Of a stretch of 35,571 nt of DNA, positions 1,543-30,178 are shown one piece after another. The stretch comes from Oscillospiraceae bacterium (lineage in GTDB: Bacteria > Bacillota > Clostridia > Oscillospirales > Ruminococcaceae): NCBI GenBank assembly GCA_029006135.1, contig JAQXGE010000061.1:1-35571 (forward strand). Direction: 5' to 3'. The notes beneath the pieces are model-generated. The model ran no database searches. It was not told the DNA's origin and saw only the letters and a list, made by a program, of their open reading frames with translations. Each line of letters begins with the position of its first letter. Position 1 is the stretch's first letter. A program made the translations under genes and the position numbers.

Positions 1543-1866
1543 ATGGGAAATTGAGACAAGGCTCCCCTTGAAGCAAGGGGAGCTGTCAGCGATAGCTGAC
1601 TGAGGGGATTTAAGCCTTGCCGTCAACTGCCATGTATCTTTTATAGCATCCGCTGCCGCAGGCGGTACTCTTTTGTGACCAAACGAGTACCCAGAAAAGT
1701 CTCGCTGTTCCGATGCAGCGAACCCCGGCTCGGGGGACCTGTCCCCCGAGACCCCCAAAGAGGTATGAAAATTTGAAAATTCACCCCAAAGTCCACAACC
1801 GGACGGACTTTGGGACGAATTTTCAAATTTTCGATTAAAAAACCGCCCCGCCTTAGCGGGACGGTT
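1543..1866. repeat. Dispersed multi-hairpin element, copy 1
   Basis: This ~320 bp element fills the gap between the convergent mnmE and DUF624 genes. In order it holds these hairpins: CTCCCCTTG/CAAGGGGAG (1562-1582); GTCAGC/GCTGAC; GTACTCTTTTG paired with a mutated partner (1665-1690); TCGCTG/CAGCGA; CTCGGGGGA/TCCCCCGAG (1729-1750); a long two-part helix (about 1768-1830) with 14 outer and 10 inner pairs around a 2x2 internal loop; and a GC hairpin at 1841-1866. No coding capacity is seen. Full copies with the same order are at 9719 and 29859. Confidence 0.9.
1835..1866 (-). terminator. Terminator for the DUF624 gene, formed by the repeat's last hairpin
   Basis: On the minus strand the RNA reads CCGTCCCGC, a short loop, then GCGGGGCGG followed by six T. 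The stem pairs fully if one G-U pair is allowed, whereas on the plus strand that position is a C-A mismatch. It therefore suits the minus-strand gene ending at 1887. Confidence 0.75.
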
Positions 1867-2963: not shown

Positions 2964-2992
2964 TTTACAAATCGGCCCAAAACAAGTACAAT
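2964..2992 (+). promoter_or_regulatory. Promoter of the first DUF3048 lipoprotein gene
   Basis: TTTACA at 2964-2969 and TACAAT at 2987-2992 are separated by exactly 17 bases, each a 5/6 match. This supports a translation start at 3048 rather than at 2991, which would overlap the -10 element. Confidence 0.75.
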
Positions 2993-3047
2993 GAGAATTA
3001 AGAAAAAACGGTTGCCCTGCGGACACCAAACAGAAAGGAAAGCATTG

Positions 3048-4370
3048 ATGAAACGTTATTTTGTGTGCATCCTGGCAGTTCTTGCGGCTTGCGTTATGCT
3101 CGCGGCGTGCCAGAAGGAAACAGCATCTTCATCCGGCTCCCAGCCTGCCGCTGTCTCTACCCCCGAGCCAACGCCGGAACCGACCCCGACCCTGCCTCCC
3201 TATGAGGCCAACGTTCTGACCGGTGAACCCAAAGGGGAAAACTACCCCGAGGGTCAGCGCATCACCGCCGTCATGGTGAACAACCTTGTGGATGCCCGCC
3301 CGCAGCGCGGACTTTCCCGCGCGCAGATGCTCTTTGAAATCAAGGTTGAGGGCGGCATCACCCGCTTTATGCCGGTGTTCAATGACTACCATGACATTGA
3401 GGAAATCGGACCCGTCCGCTCGGGACGCGACCAGTTCTTCCGTCTGATTCTGCCCTGGCAGGCGCTCTATGTCCATGAAGGCGAGAGCGTTGTCATGAAG
3501 CAGTATGCGCTGGATTATGATTACGGCAACCTGAACAATAATAATGGCGCCAACGGCTACCGCGACTACAACCGTGTCAACTGGCGCGGCCAGAGTTACG
3601 GCAACGGTCTGGCCAAGGAACACACCATGTACACCAGCGGCGAGAACATCGCCAAGTATATCGAGGACATGGATGTGGATATGAACCGCACCTACAACTC
3701 CACCTTCTTCAACTTCGTGGATTACCGGCAGGAAAACCCGGTCCGTGACCTGACGGCCTCCCCGGATTCTGCGCTCACCACCAAGGACGGCCCGGTTGTG
3801 ACGGACGGCGAGTATGTGGAAATCAGCCACAGTGCTTCCTACAAGACCCGTTTCCTCTATGACAATGTCAACAATGTCTACCTCATGCAGCAGAACTTTG
3901 CGGGCGACTGGCGCGACACAGTGGATGAGGAGTACGATGACTACCAGCTCCAGTTCCCCAATGTGATTGTTCTGTTCACCGACATTCACACCTATCCCGG
4001 CCACGAGGCAAAAGATCTCCAGTACGCCGAGTACAGCTGGGGCGGCATCGGCTACTACTGCTACGGCGGCAAGGCCGAGAAAATCTACTGGCAGAAGGGC
4101 ACGCCGCTGGAGGCTCTGCGCCTGTACTATCTGGATGAAAACGGCCAGTGCAGCGATACCCCGTGCGAGATCAACATCGGCAAGAGCTATGTCTCTATCG
4201 TGGACGTGGATGAGGCTGTCAACTTTAAGACTGGCCTGCTGACCGACTATGACCTGGATGCGGCCACTGTTGCGGCGAGCAACACCTCCGTGGATGCCGA
4301 TGCGGGCGAGGGCGAGAGCCTGAACGTCTCCACCGATGATCTGACCAACGCGGCCCGCGGAGAAGGCTGA
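3048..4370 (+). CDS. DUF3048 (YerB-like) lipoprotein, paralogue 1
   Basis: This is a predicted secreted lipoprotein of 440 residues. A signal peptide ends in the lipobox LAAC, with the lipidated cysteine at residue 21. A short Ser/Pro/Thr linker with EPTP repeats follows, then the two-part DUF3048 region (family knowledge: YerB-like, role unknown, outer face of the membrane). Motifs typical of the family are RPQRGLSRA, EGGITRFMPVF and GPVRSGRDQF near the start. The start at 3048 follows AGAAAGGAAAG. Its neighbour at 4469 is a diverged paralogue in the same direction, with a terminator between them, so the two can be expressed unequally. Confidence 0.88.
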   Translation: MKRYFVCILAVLAACVMLAACQKETASSSGSQPAAVSTPEPTPEPTPTLPPYEANVLTGEPKGENYPEGQRITAVMVNNLVDARPQRGLSRAQMLFEIKVEGGITRFMPVFNDYHDIEEIGPVRSGRDQFFRLILPWQALYVHEGESVVMKQYALDYDYGNLNNNNGANGYRDYNRVNWRGQSYGNGLAKEHTMYTSGENIAKYIEDMDVDMNRTYNSTFFNFVDYRQENPVRDLTASPDSALTTKDGPVVTDGEYVEISHSASYKTRFLYDNVNNVYLMQQNFAGDWRDTVDEEYDDYQLQFPNVIVLFTDIHTYPGHEAKDLQYAEYSWGGIGYYCYGGKAEKIYWQKGTPLEALRLYYLDENGQCSDTPCEINIGKSYVSIVDVDEAVNFKTGLLTDYDLDAATVAASNTSVDADAGEGESLNVSTDDLTNAARGEG

Positions 4371-4468: not shown

Positions 4469-5815
4469 ATGAAACCTTTGCAGGCATTGACGGCTGCGGC
4501 CTTGGCGGCCCTGCTGCTGGTCGGCTGTGCGGGGGAGCCTTCCTCCTCCGCTGCGGCTGAGCCAACGCCCACACCCACGGTGGAACCGACCCCCGAACCC
4601 ACACCCGCATTAACCCTTGACCCGCTGACCGGCAAAGAGCGGGACGACTGCGGCGGTCAGCGCCCTGTGGCGGTGAGCATCCGCACCGGGGACGGCGCGG
4701 CACCCCAGTGGGGTATTTCCCGCGCGGGGCTGATCATTGAGGGCGTCACCGAGGGCAGAACGGCAGGCATGACCGCCGTGTTTTCCTGTGCTTCCGATGT
4801 GGAAAAAGCCGGTCCGGTCGGCCCCGGCCGTGACCTGCCCCTTCAGCTGACCCTTCCGCTCAATGCGATCCCGGTGCATATCAACAAAAACATCTACGCC
4901 TCCAATCTCCTCAATGCACTGACGTATCAGGATTTGGACGGCTACCACATCGGCAAAGCGGCCTTTGCCTTTGACGAGGAGCGCGCGGCGGCGGGATTCC
5001 GGGAGGAAAATTGCTGGTACACCACCGGTGACCTCATCGCGGCGGGCTTGTCCGCCTACGGGATGGACACAACGGGGAACAATATGACGCTGTTCAGCTT
5101 CGGCGAGCGCTCTGCCCCGGAAAGCTGCACCGCCAAGAATCTGCGCATCACCTTTTCGGATGAGGACGCGGAGGAACTGGTTTTTGACCCGGATACCCGG
5201 CTGTACTTCAAGTACCACGCCGATGGTTCCCCCGTGATGGACGCGGCAGCGGGGGAGCAGGTTGTGTTCTCCAACGTCTTTGTGCTGTATGCGTCCTCCG
5301 GAATCAAGGACGACGGCGTGACCCGCCAGTATGATTTGACGGGCGGCACCGGCATCTACCTGACGGACGGCGCATGGGAGACCATCGGCTGGACCAAGGA
5401 CGATGCCACGGCACCGCTCAGCCTGACCGATGCGGGCGGAAAGACGCTGACCGTCAGCCCCGGTCAGAGCCTAATTGTCATCTATGGCGGCTACTATGGC
5501 CAGAGCCTGCGCCTGACCGATGCGGACGGCAATGAGCAGACACTGCCCGAAAAGCCCGCACTGCTTGAGAGCGGCATCCCCGATGAGGTGGCGGCACAGG
5601 CAGAGATGGCGGAGAAAATTGAGGACGCCAAAGCCGCCTACGATGCGGCGGCTGCCGAACTGGCTGCTTTGCAGGAGCAGCAGCCGGACCCTGCGGATGC
5701 AGAAGCCGCCCAGAAACTGGCCGATGCCCAGGCGGCATTTGACAAAGCCGCCGCGGAGCTTGCAGCCCTGGCGGAACAGCAGGAGAATACAGCAGATGCC
5801 GCACCGGCCGAATGA
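4469..5815 (+). CDS. DUF3048 lipoprotein, paralogue 2, with an alanine-rich coiled-coil tail
   Basis: The protein has 448 residues. The signal peptide ends LVGC with the lipid cysteine at residue 20. A Pro/Thr linker with EPTP repeats is followed by a DUF3048 region (GISRAGLIIEGVTEGRTAGM and GPVGPGRDLPL match the paralogue upstream). Unlike that paralogue, it carries a tail of about 65 residues that is almost only Ala, Glu, Gln, Asp and Lys. The tail contains two copies of a segment reading A-Y/F-D-x-AAAELAAL-x-EQQ about 36 residues apart, suggesting a duplicated alpha-helical hairpin or coiled coil. The start follows GGAAAGAG. Function unknown; a role at the cell surface is inferred from the lipobox. 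Confidence 0.85.
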   Translation: MKPLQALTAAALAALLLVGCAGEPSSSAAAEPTPTPTVEPTPEPTPALTLDPLTGKERDDCGGQRPVAVSIRTGDGAAPQWGISRAGLIIEGVTEGRTAGMTAVFSCASDVEKAGPVGPGRDLPLQLTLPLNAIPVHINKNIYASNLLNALTYQDLDGYHIGKAAFAFDEERAAAGFREENCWYTTGDLIAAGLSAYGMDTTGNNMTLFSFGERSAPESCTAKNLRITFSDEDAEELVFDPDTRLYFKYHADGSPVMDAAAGEQVVFSNVFVLYASSGIKDDGVTRQYDLTGGTGIYLTDGAWETIGWTKDDATAPLSLTDAGGKTLTVSPGQSLIVIYGGYYGQSLRLTDADGNEQTLPEKPALLESGIPDEVAAQAEMAEKIEDAKAAYDAAAAELAALQEQQPDPADAEAAQKLADAQAAFDKAAAELAALAEQQENTADAAPAE

Positions 5816-7997: not shown

Positions 7998-8178
7998 TGT
8001 CTTACAAACCTCTTTTCGCGCCGGGACAGCTCTCCCCACCCGGCAAATATATTTTGTGCGGATTCCATCCGGCACTTGACATACCAATACTTTACCACAC
8101 AATTCGGATAAAATAAACAGTTTTTTGAGGAATTTGAAAAATAATTTGGTGAAAAACGGAACACTCCCCACGATACAC

Positions 8179-8226
8179 AAAAAAACGCCGCCATCTTTGT
8201 GCGGACTGCACAAAGATGGCGGCGTT
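8179..8226 (-). terminator. Strong terminator closing the micropeptide operon
   Basis: A perfect 19-bp stem (8184-8202 with 8208-8226) and a 5-base loop are followed, on the minus strand, by a T run (8179-8183). It lies 38 bases after the stop of the last micropeptide gene and separates that unit from the EF-G-like gene. Confidence 0.9.
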
Positions 8227-8264
8227 CATTCCGACTCGAAAGAGCCGGGGCATGGTGAAGAAGA

Positions 8265-8342
8265 TTACTGGTTCAGCATGGCGGCGGCCACGAGAACCTC
8301 ATCCTCGGTCATGGAATGGTTTTTGAAGTTAAAGATGAACAT
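8265..8342 (-). CDS. Micropeptide 3 of a tandem family (25 residues)
   Basis: ATG at 8342, TAA at 8265-8267. The peptide begins MFIFNFKNHS and continues MTEDEVLVAAAMLNQ. I do not recognise the family. Its structure matches the other two peptides: a hydrophobic MF-(I/F)-(F/I) start, Asn at position 8, then M-T-x-D and a short helix-forming, Val/Ala-rich end. The ribosome site is GAAAGGAGCGAT, nearly identical in all three genes. It is the last gene before the terminator, 43 bases after peptide 2. There is no signal peptide of ordinary length and no cysteine. The paralogy and shared ribosome sites argue that it is translated; function unknown. Confidence 0.75.
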   Translation of the reverse strand: MFIFNFKNHSMTEDEVLVAAAMLNQ

Positions 8343-8385
8343 AAAGTCATCGCTCCTTTCTTAAAATACAGGACTGAACGAAAAA

Positions 8386-8463
8386 TCAGAGATTGACAAT
8401 AGCGCTGGCAACAAGGGCCTGGTCCACGGTCATCGTGGTATTCTGGGATTTGAAGATGAACAT
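8386..8463 (-). CDS. Micropeptide 2 of a tandem family (25 residues)
   Basis: ATG at 8463, TGA at 8386-8388. The peptide begins MFIFKSQNTT and continues MTVDQALVASAIVNL. It shares with its neighbours the MF start, Asn8, the Met-Thr pair at 11-12, Asp14 and the Val-Ala pair at 18-19. It is the least acidic of the three, with one Lys and one Asp. The ribosome site GAAAGGAGCGAT precedes it. A second ATG inside that site is out of frame and is absent in peptide 1, so the start given here is the conserved one. No known family is recognised. Confidence 0.75.
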   Translation of the reverse strand: MFIFKSQNTTMTVDQALVASAIVNL

Positions 8464-8523
8464 AAGGTCATCGCTCCTTTCACAGGTAAGTTGTATAGGC
8501 GCGGCGGTGTGCCGTGCGGCAAG

Positions 8524-8541
8524 CGGCCCTTGTGCGGGCCG
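8524..8541 (-). other. GC-rich hairpin between micropeptide genes 1 and 2
   Basis: CGGCCC (8524-8529) pairs with GGGCCG (8536-8541) around a 6-base loop. It lies in the 93-base spacer between peptides 1 and 2, which is otherwise also GC-rich and can form more stems. No T run follows on the minus strand, so it is not a standard terminator. It could stabilise or process the transcript and set different peptide amounts. Confidence 0.5.
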
Positions 8542-8556
8542 GGCATTGACAGAAAA

Positions 8557-8637
8557 TCAAAGGTCGATCATCGAGGTGGCGACGATCATCTGATCCTCGG
8601 TCATGCCTGCGTTGTTCTTGAAGTGGATGAAGAACAT
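8557..8637 (-). CDS. Micropeptide 1 of a tandem family (26 residues)
   Basis: ATG at 8637, TGA at 8557-8559. The peptide begins MFFIHFKNNAG and continues MTEDQMIVATSMIDL. It is the promoter-proximal member and has one extra residue (Gly11) before the conserved Met-Thr. The ribosome site is GAAAGGAGCGAT and the start codon lies 33 bases from the -10 box. The sequence is amphipathic: an aromatic, hydrophobic first third, then an acidic turn and a Met/Ile/Val-rich helix. No modification enzyme, transporter or protease gene is next to it, so a bacteriocin-type role is not supported here. The divergent AraC-type gene is the only obvious partner. Confidence 0.77.
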   Translation of the reverse strand: MFFIHFKNNAGMTEDQMIVATSMIDL

Positions 8638-8669
8638 AATCTATCGCTCCTTTCGCTTGGTATGCCCCT

Positions 8670-8698
8670 ATTATACGCCGGAAAAGAGAAAATGCCAT
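8670..8698 (-). promoter_or_regulatory. Promoter of the micropeptide operon
   Basis: On the minus strand, ATGGCA (8693-8698) and a perfect TATAAT (8670-8675) are 17 bases apart. The weak -35 sits inside the left arm of an inverted repeat, as expected for an activated or repressed promoter. Confidence 0.7.
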
Positions 8699-8730
8699 TG
8701 CATTTTGCACCACACTGTTGGCAAATGGCA
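8693..8730. promoter_or_regulatory. Inverted repeat between divergent promoters (candidate operator)
   Basis: TGCCATT (8693-8699) and AATGGCA (8724-8730) form a 7-base inverted repeat with a 24-base centre. The left arm overlaps the micropeptide -35 box and the right arm lies in the spacer of the AraC-type promoter. A dimeric regulator bound here could control both transcripts. The AraC-type protein next door is the natural candidate, but that is an inference. Confidence 0.5.
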
Positions 8731-8746
8731 CCGACTGTGCTACAAT
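8718..8746 (+). promoter_or_regulatory. Promoter of the AraC-family regulator
   Basis: TTGGCA (8718-8723) and TACAAT (8741-8746) are 17 bases apart, both 5/6 matches to consensus. The start codon follows about 33 bases later. Confidence 0.75.
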
Positions 8747-8779
8747 GAAACAAAGGATGAAATGCAAGGAGGGTGCGGA

Positions 8780-9631
8780 ATGGAAAATACGCGCGGATTT
8801 GAAACATCCCAGCTGACACTCCAGATGCGCCGCACGGACAACCCGGAAACGGTCTTTGCGCCGCATTGTCATGAGTGGTATGAGATTTATTGCTTCCTCG
8901 GCGGGCAGGCGGATTTCCGCGTGGAGGGCGTGTGCTATCCGCTGCGGCCGGGCGATGCGCTGCTGCTGGAGCGCTCCCGGTTCCATAGCGTTCAGGCGAC
9001 CGCCGCGGAGGGGGATTACTGCCGGGCAACCATACAGTTTGCCCACGAAATTCTGCGGGATGACGAGCAATGTCTGCTTGAACCGTTCACAGGCACGGCA
9101 ATTTTGTATCCCGGTGCATGGGAGAAGATTGACCGGCGGGTGGAGGCGCTGGAAAAGGCATCCGAGATGCCGGAAGTGGTGCGCAATCTTGCAATTCGCA
9201 CCGAATTGGTCGGTATTCTGCTGGAACTATTTGCAATGTCTGGCACGGCTACGGGCGCGACGGAGACCCATGCCCGTATTCAGGAGGTCCTTACCTACAT
9301 CAACGCCAACCTGACCGCGCCGCTCACCCTTGAGGGGCTGGCCGAAAAGTTTTACATGGGCCGCAACACGCTGGCCCGTGCGTTCAAGCGGGCCACGGGC
9401 AGCACGGTGGCGGACTACATCCTGTACAAAAGAATGGCGCTTGCGCGGATTTTCCTTCATTCGGGGCATCCGGCGGGGGTAGTGGCGCGGGAATGTGGAT
9501 TCTCGGATTATTCCACCTTTTACCGCAGCTACAAAAAGATTTACGGGCAAAGCCCCTCAGCACCGCAGGCGGCGGACGAAAATGACGAGCCGCTGACCAC
9601 GGCACTGGCTCCGACCCCGGATGCACTATGA
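8780..9631 (+). CDS. AraC-family transcriptional regulator with a cupin sensor domain
   Basis: The protein has 283 residues. The N-terminal half is a cupin-type fold with the pattern PHCHEWYEIYCFLGG (His29, His31, Glu35), as in AraC proteins that sense small ligands. The C-terminal third is the double helix-turn-helix: LEGLAEKFYMGRNTLARAFKRATG, then VARECGFSDYSTFYRSYKKIYGQSP, the second being the AraC signature. A 20-residue disordered tail follows. The start at 8780 has GGAGGGT upstream; the open frame extends further left only across the promoter. It is divergent from the micropeptide operon, so it probably controls it. No sugar or other substrate genes flank it that would name a ligand. 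Confidence 0.9.
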   Translation: MENTRGFETSQLTLQMRRTDNPETVFAPHCHEWYEIYCFLGGQADFRVEGVCYPLRPGDALLLERSRFHSVQATAAEGDYCRATIQFAHEILRDDEQCLLEPFTGTAILYPGAWEKIDRRVEALEKASEMPEVVRNLAIRTELVGILLELFAMSGTATGATETHARIQEVLTYINANLTAPLTLEGLAEKFYMGRNTLARAFKRATGSTVADYILYKRMALARIFLHSGHPAGVVARECGFSDYSTFYRSYKKIYGQSPSAPQAADENDEPLTTALAPTPDAL

Positions 9632-9718: not shown

Positions 9719-10046
9719 TAATTGGAGTAGAGATAAGCCTCCCCTTGAAGCAAGGGGAGGTGGCTCGCGCAGCGAGACGGAAGGGATTTAAGCCCTGCCG
9801 TAGCCTGCCGTTCATCTATAATAACTTCAGCTGCCGCAGACGGTACTCTTTTGTGACCAAAAGAGTACCCAGAAAAGTCTCGCTGTTCCGACGCAGCGAA
9901 TCCGCGGCCAGGGAGCTACGCCCCCTGGACCCCACGAAAAAGGATAAAAATTTGAAAATTCACCCCAAAGACTACTCTCCGGACAGTCTTTGGGACGAAT
10001 TTTTAAATTTTCGATTAAATAACCGCCCCGCTCTGGCGGGACGGTT
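9719..10046. repeat. Dispersed multi-hairpin element, copy 2
   Basis: Same order of hairpins as copies 1 and 3, between the convergent AraC-type and thioesterase genes. The first stem is CCTCCCCTTG/CAAGGGGAGG. GTACTCTTTTG pairs perfectly with CAAAAGAGTAC. The fifth hairpin has a different sequence, CCAGGG/CCCTGG, but still pairs. The inner long stem is CCCAAAGACT with AGTCTTTGGG, differing from copy 1 on both sides so that pairing is kept. The terminal GC hairpin is at 10021-10046. Confidence 0.9.
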
Positions 10047-12823: not shown

Positions 12824-13237
12824 TCATTCAATGGAGATGGCCTTTGTCTCGGGCTGGGGCTTGACGTACTTGGGGAGCGTGACGCGCAGCACGCCGTCCG
12901 TGTAGGATGCGTGGATGTGTGCGGTATCCACACCGGTCACATCAAAACTGCGGGTAAAGCTGCCGTAACTGCGCTCACAGCGCAGATAACCGGACTTCTG
13001 CTCCTGGTTCTCAAAATCACTGTGGCGTTCAGCTTTGATGGTGAGAGTATTGCCGCTGAGACTCAGCGAAACATCCTCCTTCTTGAAGCCGGGCAGGTCG
13101 CACTCCATCAGGTAGGAGTCACCATTGTCGCGGATATCGGTCTTAAACTCGGCCAGGCCGTTGTCACCAAAGAATGTATTGTTGATGTCCTCAAAATCAC
13201 GGAACGGATTGTAACGACGATCAATCAGCATAGCCAT
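12824..13237 (-). CDS. hsp20: Hsp20 family small heat shock protein, paralogue 1
   Basis: A 137-residue alpha-crystallin chaperone that holds unfolding proteins in an ATP-independent way. The N-terminus (RRYNPFRDFED) is short. The alpha-crystallin domain runs from about residue 33 to 127 and includes ECDLPGFKKEDV and DGVLRVTLPK. The C-terminus ends with an ISI motif, the IxI/V element that docks into neighbouring subunits. It is about three quarters identical to the gene at 15278. The start follows AAAAGGAGATATGACTT, shared word for word with the paralogue. The upstream region holds a CIRCE-like site and three phased hexamers, so heat and possibly another signal control it. Confidence 0.95.
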   Translation of the reverse strand: MAMLIDRRYNPFRDFEDINNTFFGDNGLAEFKTDIRDNGDSYLMECDLPGFKKEDVSLSLSGNTLTIKAERHSDFENQEQKSGYLRCERSYGSFTRSFDVTGVDTAHIHASYTDGVLRVTLPKYVKPQPETKAISIE

Positions 13238-15277: not shown

Positions 15278-15691
15278 TCAGTCGATTGCGATGGAACGGC
15301 CATCGTTCTGCGGCTTAACGTACTTGGGCAGCGTGATGCGCAGCACGCCGTCCGTGTAGGAAGCGCGGATGCGGGAAGTATCCACGCCGTTGATATTGAA
15401 GCTGCGGCTGTAAGTGCCGTAGTTGCGCTCGCAGCGCAGGTAGCCGGCTTTCTTGTCCTGATTCTCAAAGTCGCTGTGACGCTCCGCCTTGATGGTGAGC
15501 ATATCGTCCTCGAGATTCAGCGAGATATCTTCCTTGCGGAAGCCGGGCAGGTCACATTCGATGAGATAGTTGTCACCGATATCGCGGATATCGGTCTTGA
15601 ACTCGGCCAGACCATTGTCACCAAAGAAAGAACGATTCAAGTCCTCAAAATCACGGAACGGATTGTAGCGGCGCTCAAACATCATAGCCAT
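15278..15691 (-). CDS. hsp20: Hsp20 family small heat shock protein, paralogue 2
   Basis: A 137-residue close duplicate of the Hsp20 at 12824, equal in length. It keeps the RRYNPFRDFED start, GDNGLAEFKTDIRD, ECDLPGFRKEDI and DGVLRITLPKYVKP. The C-terminus ends with IAI in place of ISI. Differences cluster in the strand around residues 57-65 and in the tail, as expected for two chaperones with partly different clients or for mixed oligomers. The ribosome site, upstream hexamers and CIRCE-like site are all duplicated too, so the whole gene with its control region was copied. cls now lies between the copies. Confidence 0.95.
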   Translation of the reverse strand: MAMMFERRYNPFRDFEDLNRSFFGDNGLAEFKTDIRDIGDNYLIECDLPGFRKEDISLNLEDDMLTIKAERHSDFENQDKKAGYLRCERNYGTYSRSFNINGVDTSRIRASYTDGVLRITLPKYVKPQNDGRSIAID

Positions 15692-16753: not shown

Positions 16754-16966
16754 ATGCAGCAGCTGACACCGGAACGGGTGCTTGACGAGCTGGCGTGCAT
16801 TGCTTTTGCGGACCTTGAGGTGCAGCCGGCCCCGCCTATCAAGGTGGCAGACAAACTCCGCGCGCTGGAACTGCTCTATAAGTATCTGGGCCTTGGGGAC
16901 GGTTCCGGTGCGGAGGAGGGGGTCGTCATCGTGGATGAAGCGCCCGCAAAGGGGGAACTGCCATGA
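16754..16966 (+). CDS. Short terminase small subunit (C-terminal part only)
   Basis: A 70-residue protein. The stretch RVLDELACIAFAD followed by PPIKVADKLRALELLYKYLGL resembles the C-terminal half of phage terminase small subunits, the part that contacts the large subunit. The usual N-terminal DNA-binding domain is absent. The preceding gene encodes a helix-turn-helix protein and might supply that function. The start follows GAAAGGAGGGAACGCCC and its end overlaps the start of the large subunit gene by four bases, so the frame is a true gene and not debris. Confidence 0.65.
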   Translation: MQQLTPERVLDELACIAFADLEVQPAPPIKVADKLRALELLYKYLGLGDGSGAEEGVVIVDEAPAKGELP

Positions 16967-18195
16967 AGGTGCGGCTGAAAAATCTGATTGCGCCGGTGTT
17001 TTGGGAGGCGCACCGGGCCATCCGGCGCGGGGATGTGCAGGAACTTGTGGCAAAAGGCGGACGGGGAAGCGGCAAATCCAGCTACATCAGCATTGAACTC
17101 ATCGTGCAGCTGCTCCGCCACCCGGACTGCCACGCCATTGTCCTGCGCAAGGTGGGCGGCACGATGCGCACGAGCGTCTATGCGCAGATACGCTGGGCCA
17201 TCGGCGCGCTCGGGCTTAGCCGCAAATTCCGCTGCACGGTCAGCCCGATGGAGTGTACCTACCTGCCCACCGGGCAAAAGATTCTCTTTTTCGGCGCGGA
17301 TGATCCCGGCAAGCTCAAGAGCGTCAAGGTGCCGTTCGGAAGCATCGGTATTGCGTGGTTTGAGGAACTTGACCAGTTTGACTCCCCGGAGGAGGTGCGA
17401 AGCGTTGAACAGAGTGTCTTTCGCGGCGGGGATTTTTCGCTCTCCTTCAAGAGCTTCAACCCGCCCGCCATGGGGCGCAGCTGGGTCAACCGCTATGTGC
17501 TGGAAGCCCGCCCCGGGCGCCTTGTCCACCACTCCACCTACCGAGACCTGCCGCCCGACTGGCTGGGCAGCCGCTTCCTTGCGGACGCCGAGCACCTTGC
17601 CAAGACCAATCCCATCGCCTACCGCCATGAATATCTGGGCGAGGTCGTGGGCAATGGCGCGGCGGTGTTTGCCAATCTGCGGATTGAGGCCATCCCGGAC
17701 GAGCAGGTGTCCGGCTTTGACCGCGTGCGGCACGGCGTGGACTGGGGCTGGTACCCGGATCCCTGGGCCTACAATGCCGTGCAGTATGATGCGGCGCGGC
17801 GCACGCTGTACATCTTTGATGAGCTGACCTGCCGCCGCACACCCAACCGCGACACGGCCCGCCTGCTGCTTGAGCGCGGAATCTCCGGCCCGCTCACGGC
17901 GGATTCCGCCGAGCCGAAATCCTGCGCGGACTACCGCGCGGCGGGGCTGCCCTGCCGCGCCGCCGTCAAAGGCCCGGGCAGCGTGGAGGCCGGGATGAAA
18001 TGGCTGCAAAGTTTGCAGGCCATCGTCATTGACCCGGAGCGCTGCCCCGATACGGCGGCGGAATTTACCGGGTACGAGTACGCGCGGGATCCCCGCACCG
18101 GCGCGGTGCAGCCCGGCTACCCCGATGTGGACAACCACCACATTGACGCGGTGCGCTATGCGATGGAGGGCATCTGGCGGCGGCGCGGGGAGTGA
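16963..18195 (+). CDS. Phage terminase large subunit (PBSX XtmB type)
   Basis: The DNA-packaging motor: an ATPase that drives DNA into the capsid and a nuclease that cuts it. The 410-residue protein has a Walker A motif GGRGSGKSS at 32-40 and a Walker B IAWFEE at 130-135. The nuclease acids are plausible at Asp260 (GVDWGWYPDP), Asp314 (TADSAEPKS) and Asp395 (HHIDAVRYA). Length and motifs are normal for the family and no frame damage is seen, so both activities may still work. The start overlaps the previous stop, and its stop overlaps the portal start, as in active phage operons. Confidence 0.93.
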   Translation: MKVRLKNLIAPVFWEAHRAIRRGDVQELVAKGGRGSGKSSYISIELIVQLLRHPDCHAIVLRKVGGTMRTSVYAQIRWAIGALGLSRKFRCTVSPMECTYLPTGQKILFFGADDPGKLKSVKVPFGSIGIAWFEELDQFDSPEEVRSVEQSVFRGGDFSLSFKSFNPPAMGRSWVNRYVLEARPGRLVHHSTYRDLPPDWLGSRFLADAEHLAKTNPIAYRHEYLGEVVGNGAAVFANLRIEAIPDEQVSGFDRVRHGVDWGWYPDPWAYNAVQYDAARRTLYIFDELTCRRTPNRDTARLLLERGISGPLTADSAEPKSCADYRAAGLPCRAAVKGPGSVEAGMKWLQSLQAIVIDPERCPDTAAEFTGYEYARDPRTGAVQPGYPDVDNHHIDAVRYAMEGIWRRRGE

Positions 18196-19562
18196 AACCA
18201 ACTGTGACCAACGAGGTGATGTGGAGAGTGAAAAATTATCTGGAACAGGCATTCGGCAAAGCGGACGTGACATCACCCCGGATGCAGGCGGCTATCCGGG
18301 AATGGATGAGCCTGTATTTCGGGGAGCCGCGCCGGGAGGAGGACCCCGCCGACCGTCTGGCGGTGCTGATTGTGAGCAAGCTCTGCCGCACGGTCTTTGC
18401 GGAGTATGAGGCCCGCATGACCGGCCCGCGGGAGAGTGAACTGAGCCCCTGCCTTGCCAACCTTGACGCGGTGCGCACCCGCGCCGTGCAGTATGCGCTC
18501 GTGGGCGGTGAATGTCTGCTCAAGCCGGTGCCGGCGGGGCGGGAATTTGACTTTGTGCCCATTCGGCGGGACTGCTATGTGCCGCTCGGGCGGGACGCGG
18601 CGGGGCATCTGACCGCCGTAGGCACGATGGAACTGATGCGTGAGGGGCGCAGCGGCTACGCGCTGCTTGAACGCCGCACGGCGGGGGAGAGAGGCGTCGA
18701 GATAGAAACTCGGCTGTTTGAACTCAGCGGGGACGTTTTGGGGCACGAACTCCCGCTGGCCGCGCTGCCCCGCACGGCACAGCTCAGTCCCCGGCTTCTG
18801 CTGCCCGGCGTGCCGGGCGTGGGCCTGGCCGAACTGCGCTGCCCGCTGCTCAACTGCGTGGACGGCGGACCGGATGGCGTTGCGGTGTATGCGCCCGCCG
18901 CAGGGCTGATTCACCGCGTTGCCCGGCTCGAACACCAGCTTGGGCGTGAACTCGAGAACGGCGCATCGCGGGTGTTTGCCTCGGAGGACCTTCTGCGGCA
19001 GGATGAGGCGGGGCGGCGCAGCTTTGAGGATGACCTCTTTGTGGGCCTGCCCGATGACCCCGCCAATGTGGGCGTGACGGTGTACAGCCCGACTTTGCGA
19101 GTCGAGCAGTATCTCGCCCGCAAACAGGATTTGCTGCGCAGCTGTGAGAGCCTGATTGGTCTCAAGCGCGGAATCCTCAGCGAGGTGGAGGATACCGAGC
19201 GCACGGCCACCGAGGTCAGTTCCAGTTCGGGGGATTTCAGCCTGACTGTGCAGGACTTCCAGCGGATGTGGGCGGACGGCGCGCGCCGTGCCATGACGCT
19301 GTGCGATGCGCTCGGGCGCGCCTACGGCCAGTGGCGGGGACGGGAGTTTTCGCCAAACGATTTGATGATTGACTGGGGCGATGGGGTGCTGTTTGACCGC
19401 ACCCGAACATGGAATGAGTATTCCCAGATGGTGAACGATGGCCTGCTGCGCCCCGAACTGGCGCTGGCCTGGTATTTTGACCTGCCCCATGAGAGTGAGG
19501 CGGACCTGACTGCCATCCGCAGCCGCTATATGCCCAGTGAGAAACGAGGTGAAACACTGTGA
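18192..19562 (+). CDS. Phage portal protein
   Basis: The 456-residue protein follows the large terminase gene with a four-base overlap, the normal place for a portal. The middle and C-terminal parts fit the SPP1/PBSX-type portal family: LEHQLGRELENGASRVFASEDLL, then LARKQDLLRSCESLIGLKRGILSEVEDTERTATEVSSSSGDFSLTVQ, a helical stem and tunnel-loop region with the typical TATE motif. Portals form the dodecameric ring through which DNA enters. No separate head-morphogenesis (gp7/Mu F) or protease gene follows it. Confidence 0.85.
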   Translation: MKPTVTNEVMWRVKNYLEQAFGKADVTSPRMQAAIREWMSLYFGEPRREEDPADRLAVLIVSKLCRTVFAEYEARMTGPRESELSPCLANLDAVRTRAVQYALVGGECLLKPVPAGREFDFVPIRRDCYVPLGRDAAGHLTAVGTMELMREGRSGYALLERRTAGERGVEIETRLFELSGDVLGHELPLAALPRTAQLSPRLLLPGVPGVGLAELRCPLLNCVDGGPDGVAVYAPAAGLIHRVARLEHQLGRELENGASRVFASEDLLRQDEAGRRSFEDDLFVGLPDDPANVGVTVYSPTLRVEQYLARKQDLLRSCESLIGLKRGILSEVEDTERTATEVSSSSGDFSLTVQDFQRMWADGARRAMTLCDALGRAYGQWRGREFSPNDLMIDWGDGVLFDRTRTWNEYSQMVNDGLLRPELALAWYFDLPHESEADLTAIRSRYMPSEKRGETL

Positions 19563-19762
19563 GCGAACCCATTGAAATGCAAAATCCTATTCCTGCCGCA
19601 CAGCCTGAACCGACTGCGGCACCGGCACCCTATGCGGCCGGCACCGGATCCAGCCCGGTCCTGCCGGGGCGCGAGGCGCTTGAGCAGATGACCTACCGCG
19701 AGCGTTTGGCCCTCAAGCGCAGTGACCCCGAAACCTACCGCCGTATGCGCGAAAACGGCTGA
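19559..19762 (+). CDS. Small hypothetical protein between portal and capsid genes
   Basis: A 67-residue protein starting with GTG inside the stop of the portal gene. The first 35 residues are rich in Pro and Ala; the rest is a charged helix, EALEQMTYRERLALKRSDPETYRRMRENG. It stands where scaffold proteins are encoded. It could be a miniature scaffold or the remnant of one, but it has no clear family match by eye. Confidence 0.6.
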   Translation: MSEPIEMQNPIPAAQPEPTAAPAPYAAGTGSSPVLPGREALEQMTYRERLALKRSDPETYRRMRENG

Positions 19763-19800
19763 GCGGCGAAACGTTCATTGAAGAGAGAGGAGAAAATTTT

Positions 19801-20769
19801 ATGGCAGATACCTATACCAAACTGTCCGACCTCATTGACCCTGAAGTGATGGGGGACGTTGTCTCGGCCCGCATCCCCAAAAAGCTGCGTGTGGCGCCGT
19901 TTGCCAAGGTGGATGACACACTGGCCGGCGTTCCCGGCGACACCATCACGGTGCCGGTCTATGCCTATATTGGCGATGCCGCCGATGTGGGCGAGGGCGA
20001 GGCCGTCACCATCGAGAAGATGACCGCCTCGGTGCGCAAGGCCACCGTCAAGAAGGCCATGAAGGGCATCGGCCTCACCGATGAGGCGGTTCTTTCCGGC
20101 TACGGCAACCCCGTGGGTGAGGCCAACACCCAGCTGGCGCTCGCCATTGCGGCCAAAATCGACAACGACTGCATGGAGGTCCTGCAGACCGCAAGCCTGA
20201 ATTACGATGGCACCGATGCGGCAATCAGCTATGCGGCCGTGGTCGATGCACTCGACCTCTTTGAGGAGGAGCAGAGCAGCGACAAAGTGATTTTTGTCCA
20301 CCCCAAGCAGGTCACCCAGCTGCGCAAGAACAGTGACTTTTTGAGCGCTGACCAGTATCAGGCGGGCGTCATGCTCAGCGGCGAGGTGGGCATGATCGCC
20401 GGCTGCCGCGTGGTGCCGTCCCGAAAGGTGCCCGTGCTGGACGAGTGGTACAAAAATGATGAGGACGGAACCGTGACCGTCACAACGGACAACGTGGATG
20501 CCGTGCACAAGACGCTGCCCGATGCTAAGCTCGGCGATAAGATCACCAAAGTCAGCACCCCCATCTACTCCTGCCCCATCGTGCGGCTCGAATCCGGTGA
20601 AGCCAACGAGGACGAGGTGCCGGCGCTGACCATCTACCGCAAACGCGGCGTGAACGTTGAGACCGAGCGCAAGCCCAAGATCCGCACCACAGAGATCACG
20701 GCCGATGAGTTCTACACTGCGGTGCTTTCCAACGAAGCCAAGGTCGTGCTGGCCCGCTTCGGCGTCTGA
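19801..20769 (+). CDS. Major capsid protein, N4-gp56 family
   Basis: The 322-residue protein begins with the family's typical pattern TKLSDLIDPEVMGDVVSARIPKKLRVAPFAKVD. It continues with GDTITVPVYAYIGDAADVGEGEAV and an alanine/lysine-rich helix AKIDNDCMEVLQ, as in HK97-fold capsid proteins of the N4-gp56 type found in many Clostridia prophages. No N-terminal propeptide or protease gene is evident. The start follows GAGAGGAGAAAATTTT. The frame is full length, so a capsid shell could in principle still be built. Confidence 0.9.
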   Translation: MADTYTKLSDLIDPEVMGDVVSARIPKKLRVAPFAKVDDTLAGVPGDTITVPVYAYIGDAADVGEGEAVTIEKMTASVRKATVKKAMKGIGLTDEAVLSGYGNPVGEANTQLALAIAAKIDNDCMEVLQTASLNYDGTDAAISYAAVVDALDLFEEEQSSDKVIFVHPKQVTQLRKNSDFLSADQYQAGVMLSGEVGMIAGCRVVPSRKVPVLDEWYKNDEDGTVTVTTDNVDAVHKTLPDAKLGDKITKVSTPIYSCPIVRLESGEANEDEVPALTIYRKRGVNVETERKPKIRTTEITADEFYTAVLSNEAKVVLARFGV

Positions 20770-20783
20770 GGAGGGGGAGCTGA

Positions 20784-21164
20784 TTGCCGGATTACGAGTT
20801 CTATGTGAAGGACTTTCTGGGCGAGGACATCCCGGAACAGGCGTTTGACCGTCTGGCACGCCGCGCTGCCGATTTGCTTGAGCGCTATCGCCGGATGTTC
20901 GCCGTGACCCCGCGTGAGGGGTTTGTCTGCGCCGAGGAGTGCGCAGTCTGCGCCATTGCCGAGGCCATGTATGCCTTTGAACAGGAGGATTCCCGGCGCG
21001 GACTCTCCTCGGTCAGCGTCGGCAGTGTGAGCGAAAGCTACACCGCGCCGCCCGAACTTTGCCCGCAGACTCTCCACAGCCGGGAAACCTATTACCGGGA
21101 TTTAGCGCGGGATTACCTGCGCATCAGCCGCCGCCTGCCCCGCGGCTCCGGCTATGAGAGCTGA
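20784..21164 (+). CDS. Phage head-tail connector (adaptor) protein
   Basis: A 126-residue protein directly after the capsid gene. The pattern FVKDFLGEDIPEQAFDRLARRAADLLERY followed by two helices with AEAMYAFEQED and the SVSVGSVSESY element matches gp6/gp15-type adaptors that dock on the portal. The start is TTG after GAGGAGGGGGAGCTGA; no ATG lies nearby in frame. It overlaps the following gene by eleven bases. Confidence 0.75.
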   Translation: MPDYEFYVKDFLGEDIPEQAFDRLARRAADLLERYRRMFAVTPREGFVCAEECAVCAIAEAMYAFEQEDSRRGLSSVSVGSVSESYTAPPELCPQTLHSRETYYRDLARDYLRISRRLPRGSGYES

Positions 21165-21567
21165 ACTGCGCTGGCCGCTGTGCTGCCAGACCGTCACGCT
21201 CTATCACGCTGACCCGGCGGCGCAGAGCGTGACGCGCACGGTGGTAACGGGCGCATACCTTGACCATCGCCGCCGCGAGGTGATGGACACGGCCGCACAG
21301 GCGGGCACGGCGTTCCTGCTCATCATCCCCGAGGCATCAGCGCGGTGGGGCAAGGATTATACGCTGTCCCCGCATGACCGGGTCTATGACGGCGAAGGCC
21401 CGGCAGTCAGCTATGAGCAGTGGCCGGATTTCCTGCCTGCCCGGGTAGCGGGACTGGCGGCGGTGCAGTATGTGGACCCAAAACGGCTGCACGGCGCGGC
21501 GAGCCATGTCGAAGCGGGCGGATGGTGGACCCATGCGGGCAGCGGCGCTCACAGCCTGACCAATTAA
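21154..21567 (+). CDS. Phage minor head-tail protein (probable stopper/closure)
   Basis: A 137-residue beta-rich protein in the place of the head-closure or minor capsid protein, between the adaptor and the tail terminator. WPLCCQTVTLYHADPA and VVTGAYLDHRRREV resemble the opening of such proteins in PBSX-like Clostridia phages. Assignment rests mainly on position and size. Confidence 0.6.
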   Translation: MRAELRWPLCCQTVTLYHADPAAQSVTRTVVTGAYLDHRRREVMDTAAQAGTAFLLIIPEASARWGKDYTLSPHDRVYDGEGPAVSYEQWPDFLPARVAGLAAVQYVDPKRLHGAASHVEAGGWWTHAGSGAHSLTN

Positions 21568-21580
21568 AAAGGAGAACGCT

Positions 21581-22039
21581 ATGGAACAATCCACCCTGGA
21601 AACATTGCTTGATTGGGTGCGCGGCTGCCCGGCACTCACGGGCTGCACCTGGAGCGTGGACGAACTGGCACCGGACGGCGGCGCGGCAGGGGCCTACCCG
21701 CAGGGCGTGCGGGTGCTTGCCCGGCGCACCGATTTGCTCGGCACGGTGACTGACCGCTGCCGGCTCACCCTCGTGCTGCGCCTCACACTGCCGTTCGTGC
21801 CGGGGGATGCGGCACTTGCGGCACACAATGCGGGCAGACTGCTGGATTTCCAGCAGTGGGCGGCACAGGAGAGCGCTGCCCACCGCGCGCCCACGCTCGG
21901 GAATGCCGATGCCGCAGACGAAGTGATTACCGCCGCGGCAGGCTGCTGCGAACAGCTCCACGATGAGGGAACCGCGCGCTACCGTGTGACCCTGACGGCC
22001 GAATATACGATGAAATGGAGAGATACGGATGAAAATTGA
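21581..22039 (+). CDS. Phage minor capsid/tail terminator-like protein
   Basis: A 152-residue protein placed between the closure protein and the probable tail tube protein. It opens LETLLDWVRGCPALTG and has alternating beta strands such as RCRLTLVLRLTLPF and a closing YRVTLTAEYTMKW, as in tail terminator and minor capsid proteins of this group. The start follows AAAAGGAGAACGCT. Its last residues overlap the next gene's start. Confidence 0.6.
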   Translation: MEQSTLETLLDWVRGCPALTGCTWSVDELAPDGGAAGAYPQGVRVLARRTDLLGTVTDRCRLTLVLRLTLPFVPGDAALAAHNAGRLLDFQQWAAQESAAHRAPTLGNADAADEVITAAAGCCEQLHDEGTARYRVTLTAEYTMKWRDTDEN

Positions 22040-22508
22040 ACGCAAATACATGGCCCATTATCTGAATGCCGCCTTCGGCTCGGGCACCGACAGCTATGTG
22101 CGGCTCGGGCAGGACCTTGAGGAGTACGCTCCCGAACTGTCCGCCAACGTGGAAAAGAAGAACAACATCCTCGGTCAGACTTCGGTGGTCATTGACAGCT
22201 ACCAGAAGCAGGGCGAGGTGGCTCCCTACTACGCCGAAAAGGATGACCCGCTCTTTGAGCGCCTTCAGGCCATCCTGGACGGTGATCTGACGCTGGATGA
22301 GCTCAAGACCGACATTGTGGAGGTCAAACTCTGGGGTGATACGGCCGCAAACGCCTACCCGGCCATCCGGGAGGAATGCTACATCGAGATTGTGAGCTAC
22401 GGCGGAGACACCACCGGCTACCAGATCCCGTTCAACATCCACTATACGGGCGTCAAGACGGCAGGAACCTTTGACGTCAAGACAAAGACCTTCACCGCCG
22501 CATCTTAA
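22029..22508 (+). CDS. Probable phage major tail (tube) protein
   Basis: A 159-residue protein. ERKYMAHYLNAAF, RLGQDLEEYAPELSANVEKKNNILGQTSV, and a long middle with EKDDPLFERLQAI match Clostridia-phage major tail tube proteins. If functional it would polymerise into the tail tube. A tube would need a tape measure protein and an initiator complex, and none is encoded next: the following gene is an endolysin. Confidence 0.78.
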   Translation: MKIERKYMAHYLNAAFGSGTDSYVRLGQDLEEYAPELSANVEKKNNILGQTSVVIDSYQKQGEVAPYYAEKDDPLFERLQAILDGDLTLDELKTDIVEVKLWGDTAANAYPAIREECYIEIVSYGGDTTGYQIPFNIHYTGVKTAGTFDVKTKTFTAAS

Positions 22509-22537
22509 GCGGCGGGGGAAAGGACGGAGGTGAAGAT

Positions 22538-23176
22538 ATGAGACTCCAAAACGGGGAAGTGCTTCTTTCCTGGCCGCTGCCGCGGCATATTATTACGGCG
22601 GGCTGGACCTATAACGGCGGGCAGGAACACAACGCCATCGACCTGCGCGCCGGCATGAACCAGCCGGTTTACGCCGCCGAGGACGGCACGGTTGAGCAGA
22701 CGCAGCTGTGGGACGGCGTGACTAAGACCGGCATGCAGAGCTACGGCGTGATGTGCCGCATCCGCCATGCGGACTATAAAGGCGGGGAACTCTGCACCCG
22801 CTATGCGCATCTGACAAGCCTCTGCGTGCGCAGGGGCGATACGGTTAAGGCGGGTCAGCTGATCGGCTACTCCGGCGCGACCGGCAACTGCTACGGTTCG
22901 CACCTGCACTTTGAGGTGATTTACAAGGGCAGGCGCGTGCACCCGCTCAACTGGCTGGATGACGATTTTACCGTCAAGGACGCCGCGACCGGTGCGCATC
23001 TCGGCAGCTATACGAGCGTAAAACGCCCGGAACAGCAGGAAACTCCGGCACAGCCGCTTCAGAATCTGACCATCGGCCCGGTGAGCAGCGGGGACGCAAT
23101 GGCGTTTTACCGCCTTGCTGAACAGCGGGGTCTTGTGAGCGCCGGGCTGTACAAGAGCGAATATGCGGCGGGGTGA
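22538..23176 (+). CDS. M23 family peptidase, phage endolysin
   Basis: The 212-residue protein carries a lysostaphin-like zinc endopeptidase domain (about 20-135). The zinc site is HNAID (His31, Asp35) and HLHFE (His122, His124), with His91 between. Such enzymes cut peptide cross-bridges of the cell wall. The C-terminal 60 residues form a separate small domain, perhaps for binding or peptidoglycan targeting. It has no signal peptide, in keeping with release through the holin encoded two genes downstream. It lies 30 bases after the tail tube gene, skipping all the usual tail genes. Confidence 0.88.
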   Translation: MRLQNGEVLLSWPLPRHIITAGWTYNGGQEHNAIDLRAGMNQPVYAAEDGTVEQTQLWDGVTKTGMQSYGVMCRIRHADYKGGELCTRYAHLTSLCVRRGDTVKAGQLIGYSGATGNCYGSHLHFEVIYKGRRVHPLNWLDDDFTVKDAATGAHLGSYTSVKRPEQQETPAQPLQNLTIGPVSSGDAMAFYRLAEQRGLVSAGLYKSEYAAG

Positions 23177-23451
23177 GTGCGGTGGAGTCCATTATTGTGG
23201 CGCTCATCAGCGGCGGACTTTCGCTCCTCGGCGTGATTTTGAGCAATGCGGCCTCGGCCCGCCGCACCGAGCAGAAAATCGAGACTTCTCAGGCCGTGAC
23301 AGATACCAAACTCGATGAACTGACCCGCGAAGTGCGTGCGCACAACAATTTTGCGCAGCGCGTTCCTGTGCTCGAAGAACAGATTCGCGTGGCCAACCAC
23401 CGCCTGAGTGATTTGGAAAAGGGCTGTGCCTCCCGGATTCCGCCGGCATAA
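23173..23451 (+). CDS. Small phage protein with one membrane segment and a coiled coil
   Basis: A 92-residue protein starting with GTG in the stop of the endolysin gene. A membrane segment spans about residues 6-22 (IIVALISGGLSLLGVILSN), and a charged helical region with heptad spacing follows to residue 82. This is the layout of XhlA-like lysis accessory proteins, so a role with the holin is likely. A GTG three codons later (23182) is an alternative start. Confidence 0.65.
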   Translation: MSAVESIIVALISGGLSLLGVILSNAASARRTEQKIETSQAVTDTKLDELTREVRAHNNFAQRVPVLEEQIRVANHRLSDLEKGCASRIPPA

Positions 23452-23494
23452 GTCGGGCGGCGGGCACATAGCTTAGCGGAAAAGAGGTGATGGC

Positions 23495-23764
23495 ATGAGC
23501 ATTGACTCCCTCGGTGTGGCAAGTGTTGCCTGCATCACGGTCATCTGTTACCTGGCGGCGCTGGTCATCAAGCAGACCCCGCTCAATAACCGCTGGATTC
23601 CCACGGTCTGCGGATGCCTGGGTGCGGCGCTGGGACTGGCTGCCTATTACGGCGGCATGGTGGATTTCCCGGCCTGTGACGCCATGACGGCGCTTGCTGT
23701 CGGCATCGTCAGCGGCCTCGCTGCCACCGGCGCGGACCAGCTGGTAAAACAGCTCAAACAGTGA
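23495..23764 (+). CDS. Phage holin
   Basis: An 89-residue protein with three hydrophobic segments (about 5-23, 35-55 and 64-80) joined by short loops, and a C-terminus rich in Lys and Gln (QLVKQLKQ). It is the last gene of the module, two genes after the endolysin. It fits holins of small Clostridia phages, which make holes for endolysin exit. The start follows AAAAGAGGTGATGGC. Confidence 0.8.
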   Translation: MSIDSLGVASVACITVICYLAALVIKQTPLNNRWIPTVCGCLGAALGLAAYYGGMVDFPACDAMTALAVGIVSGLAATGADQLVKQLKQ

Positions 23765-29850: not shown

Positions 29851-29858
29851 AGCCTTGT

Positions 29859-30178
29859 GGGAAATAGAGAAAAGGCTCCCCTTGAAGCAAGGGGAGCTGT
29901 CAGCGAGAGCTGACTGAGGGGATTTAAGCCTTGCAACTAACTGCCGTTTATCTTTATAACTATCGCTGCCGCGGGCGGTACTCTTTTGTGACCAAAAGAG
30001 TACCCAGAAAAGTCTCGCTGTTCCGACGCAGCGAACCCCGGCCCAGGGGACCAGCCCCCCGAGACCCCCAAAGAGGTATGAGATTTTGAAAATTCACCCC
30101 AAAGTCTACGACCGGACAGACTTTGGGACGAATTTTCAAAATTTCGATTTAACACCGCCCCGCTGTCTGCGGGACGGG
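29859..30178. repeat. Dispersed multi-hairpin element, copy 3
   Basis: Same hairpin order as copies 1 and 2, between the convergent TraX and putP genes. GTACTCTTTTG/CAAAAGAGTAC is intact. The inner long stem is CCCAAAGTCT with AGACTTTGGG; compared with copy 1 the last pair changed from C-G to T-A on both sides. The outer stem also shows an A-T to T-A exchange. The fifth hairpin is partly broken. The last GC hairpin lies near 30153-30178. Confidence 0.9.

What the first reader, a model, noticed from the sequence alone, without database searches (positions are those of the whole stretch)
8265..8637. Three tandem paralogous genes for 25-26 residue peptides with an AraC-type partner
On the minus strand three short frames follow each other, each with the ribosome site GAAAGGAGCGAT at the same distance from its ATG. 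They align end to end: MF start, Asn8, Met-Thr, Asp, and Val-Ala in the final helix are shared by all three, while other positions vary conservatively (I/L/V, D/E/N, S/A/T). A TATAAT promoter precedes the set and a 19-bp perfect terminator closes it. A cupin-AraC regulator is divergent. This is what a real, duplicated micropeptide operon looks like, and I know no named family for it. Possible roles: membrane-active or signalling peptides, subunits of a small complex, or ligands of the regulator.
Basis: partly seen in the sequence, partly recalled or inferred. Interest (0 to 1): 0.9.

Follow-up and report, generated by a model that had tools for sequence, protein, structure and literature searches.

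The report
Micropeptide operon with dedicated AraC regulator
A gut bacterium carries three neighbouring genes for 25-26 residue peptides of an unnamed family, and the relatives found in three other species each sit back to back with the same kind of regulator gene, which makes this a testable regulator-plus-micropeptide switch whose target is still unknown.

Summary
Three paralogous 25-26 aa frames lie on the minus strand (8265-8342, 8386-8463, 8557-8637), each with GAAAGGAG before its ATG, closed by a 20-pair terminator and divergent from an AraC-type gene (8780-9631).

New here: of 35 genomes searched in the genus (Gemmiger/Subdoligranulum by record titles), the window's own and three others hold this AraC (54-60% identical). 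All 4 have short peptide frames on the opposite strand; 0 of 32 other AraC loci do. The 4 share a TTGCA repeat of 21-bp period between the promoters; 1 of the 32 others, a sister regulator, has it too. The repeat pair occurs once in the window's genome. Start-anchored comparison relates all six peptides (15 of 15 pairs, p <= 0.0224), although a profile of the window's three alone finds at most one of the other three. The 4 regulators end in an LAPxP tail that 32 of 32 relatives lack.

Pfam, NCBIfam and my paper searches name no such family. Most likely an AraC switch whose output is the micropeptides; their target is unknown. Peptide-as-ligand of the regulator is the most novel reading not excluded.

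The parts
8557..8637 (-). micropeptide gene 1 of the operon (26 aa, MFFIHFKNNAGMTEDQMIVATSMIDL); Shine-Dalgarno GAAAGGAG 8647-8654
8386..8463 (-). micropeptide gene 2 (25 aa, MFIFKSQNTTMTVDQALVASAIVNL); Shine-Dalgarno GAAAGGAG 8474-8481
8265..8342 (-). micropeptide gene 3 (25 aa, MFIFNFKNHSMTEDEVLVAAAMLNQ); Shine-Dalgarno GAAAGGAG 8353-8360
8670..8698 (-). promoter-like site of the peptide operon: -35 ATGGCA (4 of 6), 17 nt, -10 TATAAT; the other three loci have TATAAT or TATACT, and the gap to the first repeat is 22, 22, 23 and 23 nt in the four
8698..8729 (+). putative AraC operator: two direct repeats TTGCATTTTGCAC / TGGCAAATGGCAC, 21-bp period, one half at the peptide -35, the other over the AraC -35
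   Evidence: binding not shown
8718..8746 (+). promoter-like site of the AraC gene: TTGGCA, 17 nt, TACAAT with TG before it
8780..9631 (+). AraC-type regulator, 283 aa: cupin AraC_binding domain, linker helices, HTH_18
   Evidence: model with mean pLDDT 65.6
9602..9628 (+). codons of the C-terminal tail ALAPTPDAL, shared as LAPxP by 4 of 4 peptide-linked regulators and by 0 of 32 other relatives; modelled as disordered (264-283 pLDDT < 50)
8183..8227 (-). intrinsic terminator of the peptide operon, 20-pair stem, 5-nt loop, T run

Best explanation
A stand-alone switch. Shown by sequence: a peptide-only transcription unit encoding three members of an unnamed micropeptide family, back to back with an AraC-family regulator; the pair is found in four species in at least three different gene neighbourhoods. 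Inferred: the regulator binds the two repeats of 21-bp period, activates the peptide promoter (full -10, weak -35, a repeat at the -35, as in activator-dependent AraC promoters) and represses its own. Inferred, weaker: its metal-type cupin pocket (His29-x-His31-x3-Glu35, His69; motif recalled, residues invariant) senses a small molecule, perhaps a sugar or sugar acid, since several relatives face uronate or sugar isomerase genes. The peptides are then the switch's output: unprocessed, neutral to acidic micropeptides with an aromatic/hydrophobic N-terminus and a polar middle, which bind a cellular target in trans, much as known small regulatory peptides bind an enzyme, a transporter or a regulator. 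Triplication in this genome would raise dose or diversify targets.
For: Coding reality: three paralogues; protein similarity beyond random substitution; Shine-Dalgarno on all six members, and 0 such frames at 24 other congener AraC loci and 8 distant ones; all 15 pairs related when anchored at the start codon. Linkage to the regulator; the four regulators form one clade, support 0.998. Peptide-only units: hairpins after the peptide in the window, L014, L015 and L016 (the pattern scan had not listed it). Dedicated regulation: the repeat pair is at the four loci and occurs once in the window's genome, none for the reversed pattern. Ligand class: 4 of 8 distant relatives (L046, L048, L049, L069) face UxaC, UxuA or xylose-isomerase-like genes.
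Against: No expression, translation or binding data. A profile lacking both L015 and L016 scores both at background (1114 and 369 of 3000 shuffles reach them), so their membership rests on position, Shine-Dalgarno, start-anchored comparison and their likeness to each other. The scan rule was set after I had seen the peptides. In G027, G029 and G030 the operator pattern also hits 1, 3 and 2 places away from the peptide locus, and L069, which has no peptide, carries the repeat as well, so the repeat marks the regulator clade rather than the peptides. The ligand inference rests on distant regulators (L044-L049 32-39% identical); L047's partner had no Pfam hit and L044 and L050 have other neighbours; uxaC in the four genomes does not carry the repeat pair. 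The operator search allows 3 mismatches in an 84%-complete genome, so other targets may be missed.
Confidence: 0.55

Rival explanations
1. The peptides are ligands of their own regulator: an intracellular feedback peptide, or a leaderless signal that is exported and re-imported, with an AraC protein as receptor in place of an Rgg/RRNPPA protein. The LAPxP tail or the cupin pocket would be the docking site.
For: Pairing with the regulator and with no other gene in 4 of 4 loci; LAPxP tail only in the peptide-linked regulators (4 of 4 against 0 of 32), more alike than the linker before it in 5 of 6 pairs and modelled as disordered; a divergent, Shine-Dalgarno-led short frame beside the receptor is the layout of leaderless communication peptides (PMC10518010, passages).
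Against: The tail may simply be inherited by one clade. Leaderless signals in that paper are mostly 8-10 aa, these are 25-30. If the regulator controls only itself and the peptides, a pure loop has no output. No AraC receptor of this kind appeared in the listings of my paper searches, which cover only open-licence papers.
Confidence: 0.25
2. Secreted membrane-active peptides (bacteriocin or amphipathic toxin-like) made as a set.
For: Several similar short peptides in one operon, each with its own ribosome site and no leader, is a layout known from multi-peptide leaderless bacteriocins (recalled).
Against: Net charge 0 to -2 in 6 of 6; the helical moment of the C-terminal 13 residues is reached by 67-95% of shuffles; the units hold no transporter or immunity gene (hairpins right after the peptide in the four loci); no Pfam or NCBIfam family above its cut-off.
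Confidence: 0.1
3. The unit is mainly a regulatory RNA or a leader; the frames are incidental or serve only ribosome stalling.
For: Short transcript with a strong hairpin; a new RNA would not be in Rfam (no match).
Against: Three frames with separate Shine-Dalgarno sites, conservative substitutions, protein-level likeness between species, and a terminator right behind the last frame, so nothing in the unit for a leader to attenuate.
Confidence: 0.06
4. Chance open frames beside a regulator.
For: Short frames are common; two of the three relatives score at background with a profile that lacks them both.
Against: Similarity of all 15 pairs and 4 of 4 against 0 of 32 loci.
Confidence: 0.03

Closest known systems
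Leaderless communication peptides with RopB-type receptors (PMC10518010, passages read)
   Same: Short Shine-Dalgarno-led frame divergent from a regulator gene, no secretion leader, aromatic/aliphatic residues
   Different: Receptor there is RRNPPA family, here AraC; peptides mostly 8-10 aa there, 25-30 here; signalling not tested here
ANR / Aar, small protein regulators of AraC proteins (PMC4038620, passages; PMC5570504 and PMC10148876, search listing with start of abstract)
   Same: A small protein tied to an AraC-family activator
   Different: 39-80 aa and from Gram-negative pathogens there; 25-30 aa, Firmicutes (lineage by record titles) and encoded divergently here. Similarity to Aar itself was not tested
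AraC regulators facing uronate or sugar isomerase genes (L046 UxaC, L049 UxuA, L048 and L069 xylose-isomerase-like)
   Same: Related AraC proteins (tree) with a divergent partner; L069 also has the TTGCA repeat of 21-bp period
   Different: Partner is a metabolic enzyme, no peptide frame by the same rule, no LAPxP tail

Membership tests
Leaderless communication peptide / Rgg-SHP systems | Receptor of the RRNPPA family | tested here: not met
   Regulator is AraC_binding + HTH_18
Leaderless communication peptide / Rgg-SHP systems | Short frame with ribosome site next to, preferably divergent from, the receptor gene | tested here: met
Leaderless communication peptide / Rgg-SHP systems | Peptide binds the receptor and changes transcription | not testable with these tools
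   needs bench work
ANR (AraC negative regulator) family | Size 39-80 aa as described in PMC4038620 | tested here: not met
   25-30 aa
ANR (AraC negative regulator) family | Sequence similarity to Aar/Orf60 | not tested
   only Pfam and NCBIfam were scanned
ANR (AraC negative regulator) family | Binds and inhibits an AraC activator | not testable with these tools
   needs bench work
AraC/XylS regulators | C-terminal double helix-turn-helix DNA-binding domain | tested here: met
   HTH_18 E 3.7e-19; helices of the right number in a low-confidence model
Any named micropeptide family | Hit above a curated cut-off in Pfam or NCBIfam | tested here: not met
   one Pfam hit, E 0.23, below its cut-off. 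PHROGs and PADLOC were not scanned

The most novel reading that the evidence does not exclude
An AraC-family transcription factor that is the receptor of its own divergently encoded, unprocessed 25-30 aa micropeptides, docked by a dedicated LAPxP tail: a peptide-signalling or feedback circuit built on a protein family not known to me to read peptides of this kind.
Probability: 0.2. Interest if true: 0.85.

Novelty: new variant of a known kind. Interest (0 to 1): 0.6.

Why it matters
Peptides this short are rarely annotated, and few in gut Firmicutes have a genetic handle (recalled). Here regulator, putative operator, promoter, peptides and terminator fit in 1.5 kb, the pair occurs as a unit in different neighbourhoods, and only one operator pair was found in the window's genome, so input, peptide production and target can each be tested. 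If the peptides act on the regulator, AraC proteins join the peptide-reading regulators.

Tried and rejected
Peptide searches. Profile of the window's three peptides against 35 congeners: 9 of 35 had a match at E <= 1; apart from the three window peptides all were E >= 0.31, in frames of 90-620 aa, at chance level, and the true relatives in G027, G029 and G030 were missed. In one search the same profile scored L014's region 7.1 bits (4 of 1500 shuffles reach it) but L015's and L016's at background; 7 of 290 control segments scored higher than L014, and that control set holds loci fetched because they matched the profile, so it is not a clean null. A six-peptide profile over 396 family genomes gave 4 weak hits outside the window (E 0.008-0.04): three inside long frames, the fourth (L067) a stretch with a stop inside; all judged chance. 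G027, G029 and G030 do not appear as hits, so that sample evidently left them out.

AraC searches. The search for related loci with the single protein gave none, with the alignment 9 loci, 3 of them the same contigs as in G027, G030 and G029, judged by equal length. No hit for the DNA of 8100-9631 in phages, for the protein in viral contigs, or for the protein in plasmids at 1e-30. A family sample (396 genomes, E <= 1e-60) and an order sample (394, E <= 1e-55) each gave one further regulator, L050 and L069; by the rule neither has a peptide frame, nor have L044-L049 (0 of 8).

Operator. Hits of the pattern at 1-3 mismatches away from the peptide locus: 1 in G027, 3 in G029, 2 in G030. A G029 and a G030 site lie beside small helix-turn-helix frames of a mobile-element look; none of the six was beside anything I could link to the peptides (by eye). 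uxaC loci of the four genomes: single half-sites with 2 mismatches in 2 of 4, no pair.

Membrane-active reading lowered on charge and moment. Neighbour test: no thioesterase-like, DegV or AraC gene of the window's kind within 1.5 kb of the EF-G-like gene in 29 congener loci, so the window's flanks are not conserved and no clean empty site was found. The AraC model is weak (mean pLDDT 65.6, 4 sequences) and I ran no fold search on it. PDB by profile: no match at 1e-10.

Papers. Searches for an AraC-micropeptide pair showed none in the rows listed (0, 6, 15 of 70, 5 of 6, 2, 8 of 22, 4). Small-protein catalogues (listing only) were not opened, so the family may sit unnamed in one of them.

Full report
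What is there. The minus strand of 8265-8637 holds three frames of 25, 25 and 26 codons. They share M1, F2, N8, M11, T12, D14, V18 and A19. Each follows GAAAGGAG at 9-10 nt. A 20-pair hairpin with a T run closes the unit at 8227-8183. TATAAT at 8675-8670 precedes it with a weak -35. The divergent gene at 8780-9631 is an AraC protein with a cupin sensor. No Rfam family matches the window; Pfam and NCBIfam name none of the peptides.

Is it coding. Shuffling one peptide of each pair never reached the observed similarity for the three window pairs (0 of 5000 each). Random nucleotide substitution at the observed number of differences gives a protein as similar with p 0.0015 (0.001 in the other direction), 0.0085 and 0.038 for the three pairs. 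For the three cross-species pairs that I tried, of twelve possible, the same test gives 0.04-0.07, borderline. This simulation is simple and has no tree.

Relatives. In the genus sample (35 genomes, the window's included) 27 have an AraC match at 1e-20, but outside the window only G027, G030 and G029 have one at 56-60% over the matched part, the rest listed being at 31-34% (54-60% over full length). Two of these three contigs are titled uncultured Gemmiger, one uncultured Subdoligranulum. On the strand opposite each regulator lies a short frame: 25 aa in L014, 30 aa in L015 (GTG start) and in L016. A rule (Shine-Dalgarno of 5 nt or more at 4-12 nt, 18-36 codons, divergent, within 600 bp) finds exactly these and the window's three, and none at the 24 other congener AraC loci or at 8 more distant ones (432 bp only for L047). 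I set the rule after seeing the peptides; the 32 loci are the control. Start-anchored ungapped scores relate all 15 pairs (p from 0 of 5000 to 0.0224). A profile of the three relatives finds the window's peptides (0, 5 and 27 of 3000 shuffles reach them), and profiles that hold one of L015/L016 find the other (0 of 3000 each). Against this, a profile lacking both scores both at background (1114 and 369 of 3000), so they are distant members that resemble mainly each other. The six-peptide profile finds the six again by construction and nothing else convincing in 35 congeners or 396 family genomes.

Regulation. Between the two promoters the four loci have TTGCA-type direct repeats with a 21-bp period, 22-23 nt from the peptide -10. 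None of the 24 other congener loci has the exact form, 1 of 8 distant ones (L069) does. The pair, at up to 3 mismatches, occurs once in the window's genome, at 8698-8729, with none for the reversed pattern; G027, G029 and G030 have 2, 4 and 3 hits, one of each at the peptide locus. In the window alone a looser form is expected 0.02 times by chance and found once; the pattern was drawn from these same sites. One half lies at the -35 of the peptide promoter, the other over the -35 of the AraC promoter. From established knowledge of AraC proteins this suggests activation of the peptides and self-repression; it is inference.

A stand-alone pair. Hairpins follow the peptide in the four loci (in L016 seen by folding, not by the scan), so the unit is peptide-only. 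Neighbours differ: an EF-G-like gene in the window, an integrase-like frame and a PEPCK-like gene in G027, a hisH-like gene in G030; G029 shares one neighbour with G030 (identities by eye). The four regulators form one clade, 0.998, in a tree of 21 proteins, with L050 and L069 as sisters (9 of the 24 other congener loci and the 8 distant relatives were used).

A shared tail. After the last helix-turn-helix the four regulators have a linker and end in ALAPTPDAL, ALAPDPQAL, VLAPAPEDL and ALAPDPLA. None of 32 other relatives ends so. Identity in the tail exceeds that in the linker in 5 of 6 pairs (L015/L016: 4 of 9 against 9 of 18). The model leaves 264-283 at pLDDT below 50. It could be a docking site, or just clade inheritance.

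Input. Of 8 distant relatives, L046 faces UxaC, L049 UxuA, L048 and L069 xylose-isomerase-like genes; L045 and L047 face a similar frame by eye, without a Pfam hit for L047 and not scanned for L045; L044 and L050 have other neighbours. So the sensor may read a sugar acid or sugar. The four genomes do have uxaC (4 of 4) but without the repeat pair.

Function. The peptides are neutral to acidic and not amphipathic as helices, which argues against pore formers. An S/T-x-x-[E/D/Q] pattern four residues long begins at the conserved T/S in all six and resembles a helix cap (by reading; motif recalled). I favour an AraC switch whose output is the peptides (0.55 for the whole statement; about 0.9 for the gene family and pairing alone). 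Peptide as ligand of its own regulator is next (0.25).

What is known. The layout is that of leaderless communication peptides (PMC10518010, passages), but those have RRNPPA receptors and are mostly 8-10 aa. Small proteins that act on AraC activators are known as ANR (PMC4038620, passages), 39-80 aa and Gram-negative. Neither definition is met as far as tested. The rows listed by my paper searches describe no AraC-micropeptide pair in Firmicutes.

Noticed in passing
window 1544-1866, 9730-10046, 29858-30177: A roughly 320-bp dispersed intergenic repeat; one copy lies directly downstream of the AraC gene. 60 matching pieces in the window's genome at E <= 1e-10, possibly a listing limit.
   Followed up: partly
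window 16963-23764: A compact run of phage-type genes: terminase large subunit, capsid and an M23 peptidase by Pfam, with a portal-like frame (no Pfam hit) and a holin-like frame by eye; no long tape-measure frame seen in the ORF list.
   Followed up: partly
window 12824-13237 and 15278-15691: Two similar HSP20-like genes (78% identical DNA over 300 nt) on either side of a cardiolipin-synthase-like gene (names by eye).
   Followed up: no
window 2991-4370 and 4469-5815: Two adjacent lipoprotein-like genes of similar layout (PTPEPTP-type linkers), apparently tandem paralogues (by eye).
   Followed up: no
L075, L080, L088, L101, 5' of the EF-G-like gene: In these congeners a different long frame (SpoIIE-like by eye) lies where the window has the peptide operon and AraC.
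   Followed up: partly
window 8464-8556: The 93-nt gap between the first two peptide genes holds a G+C-rich stretch with possible hairpins; could be an RNA processing site (by eye).
   Followed up: no
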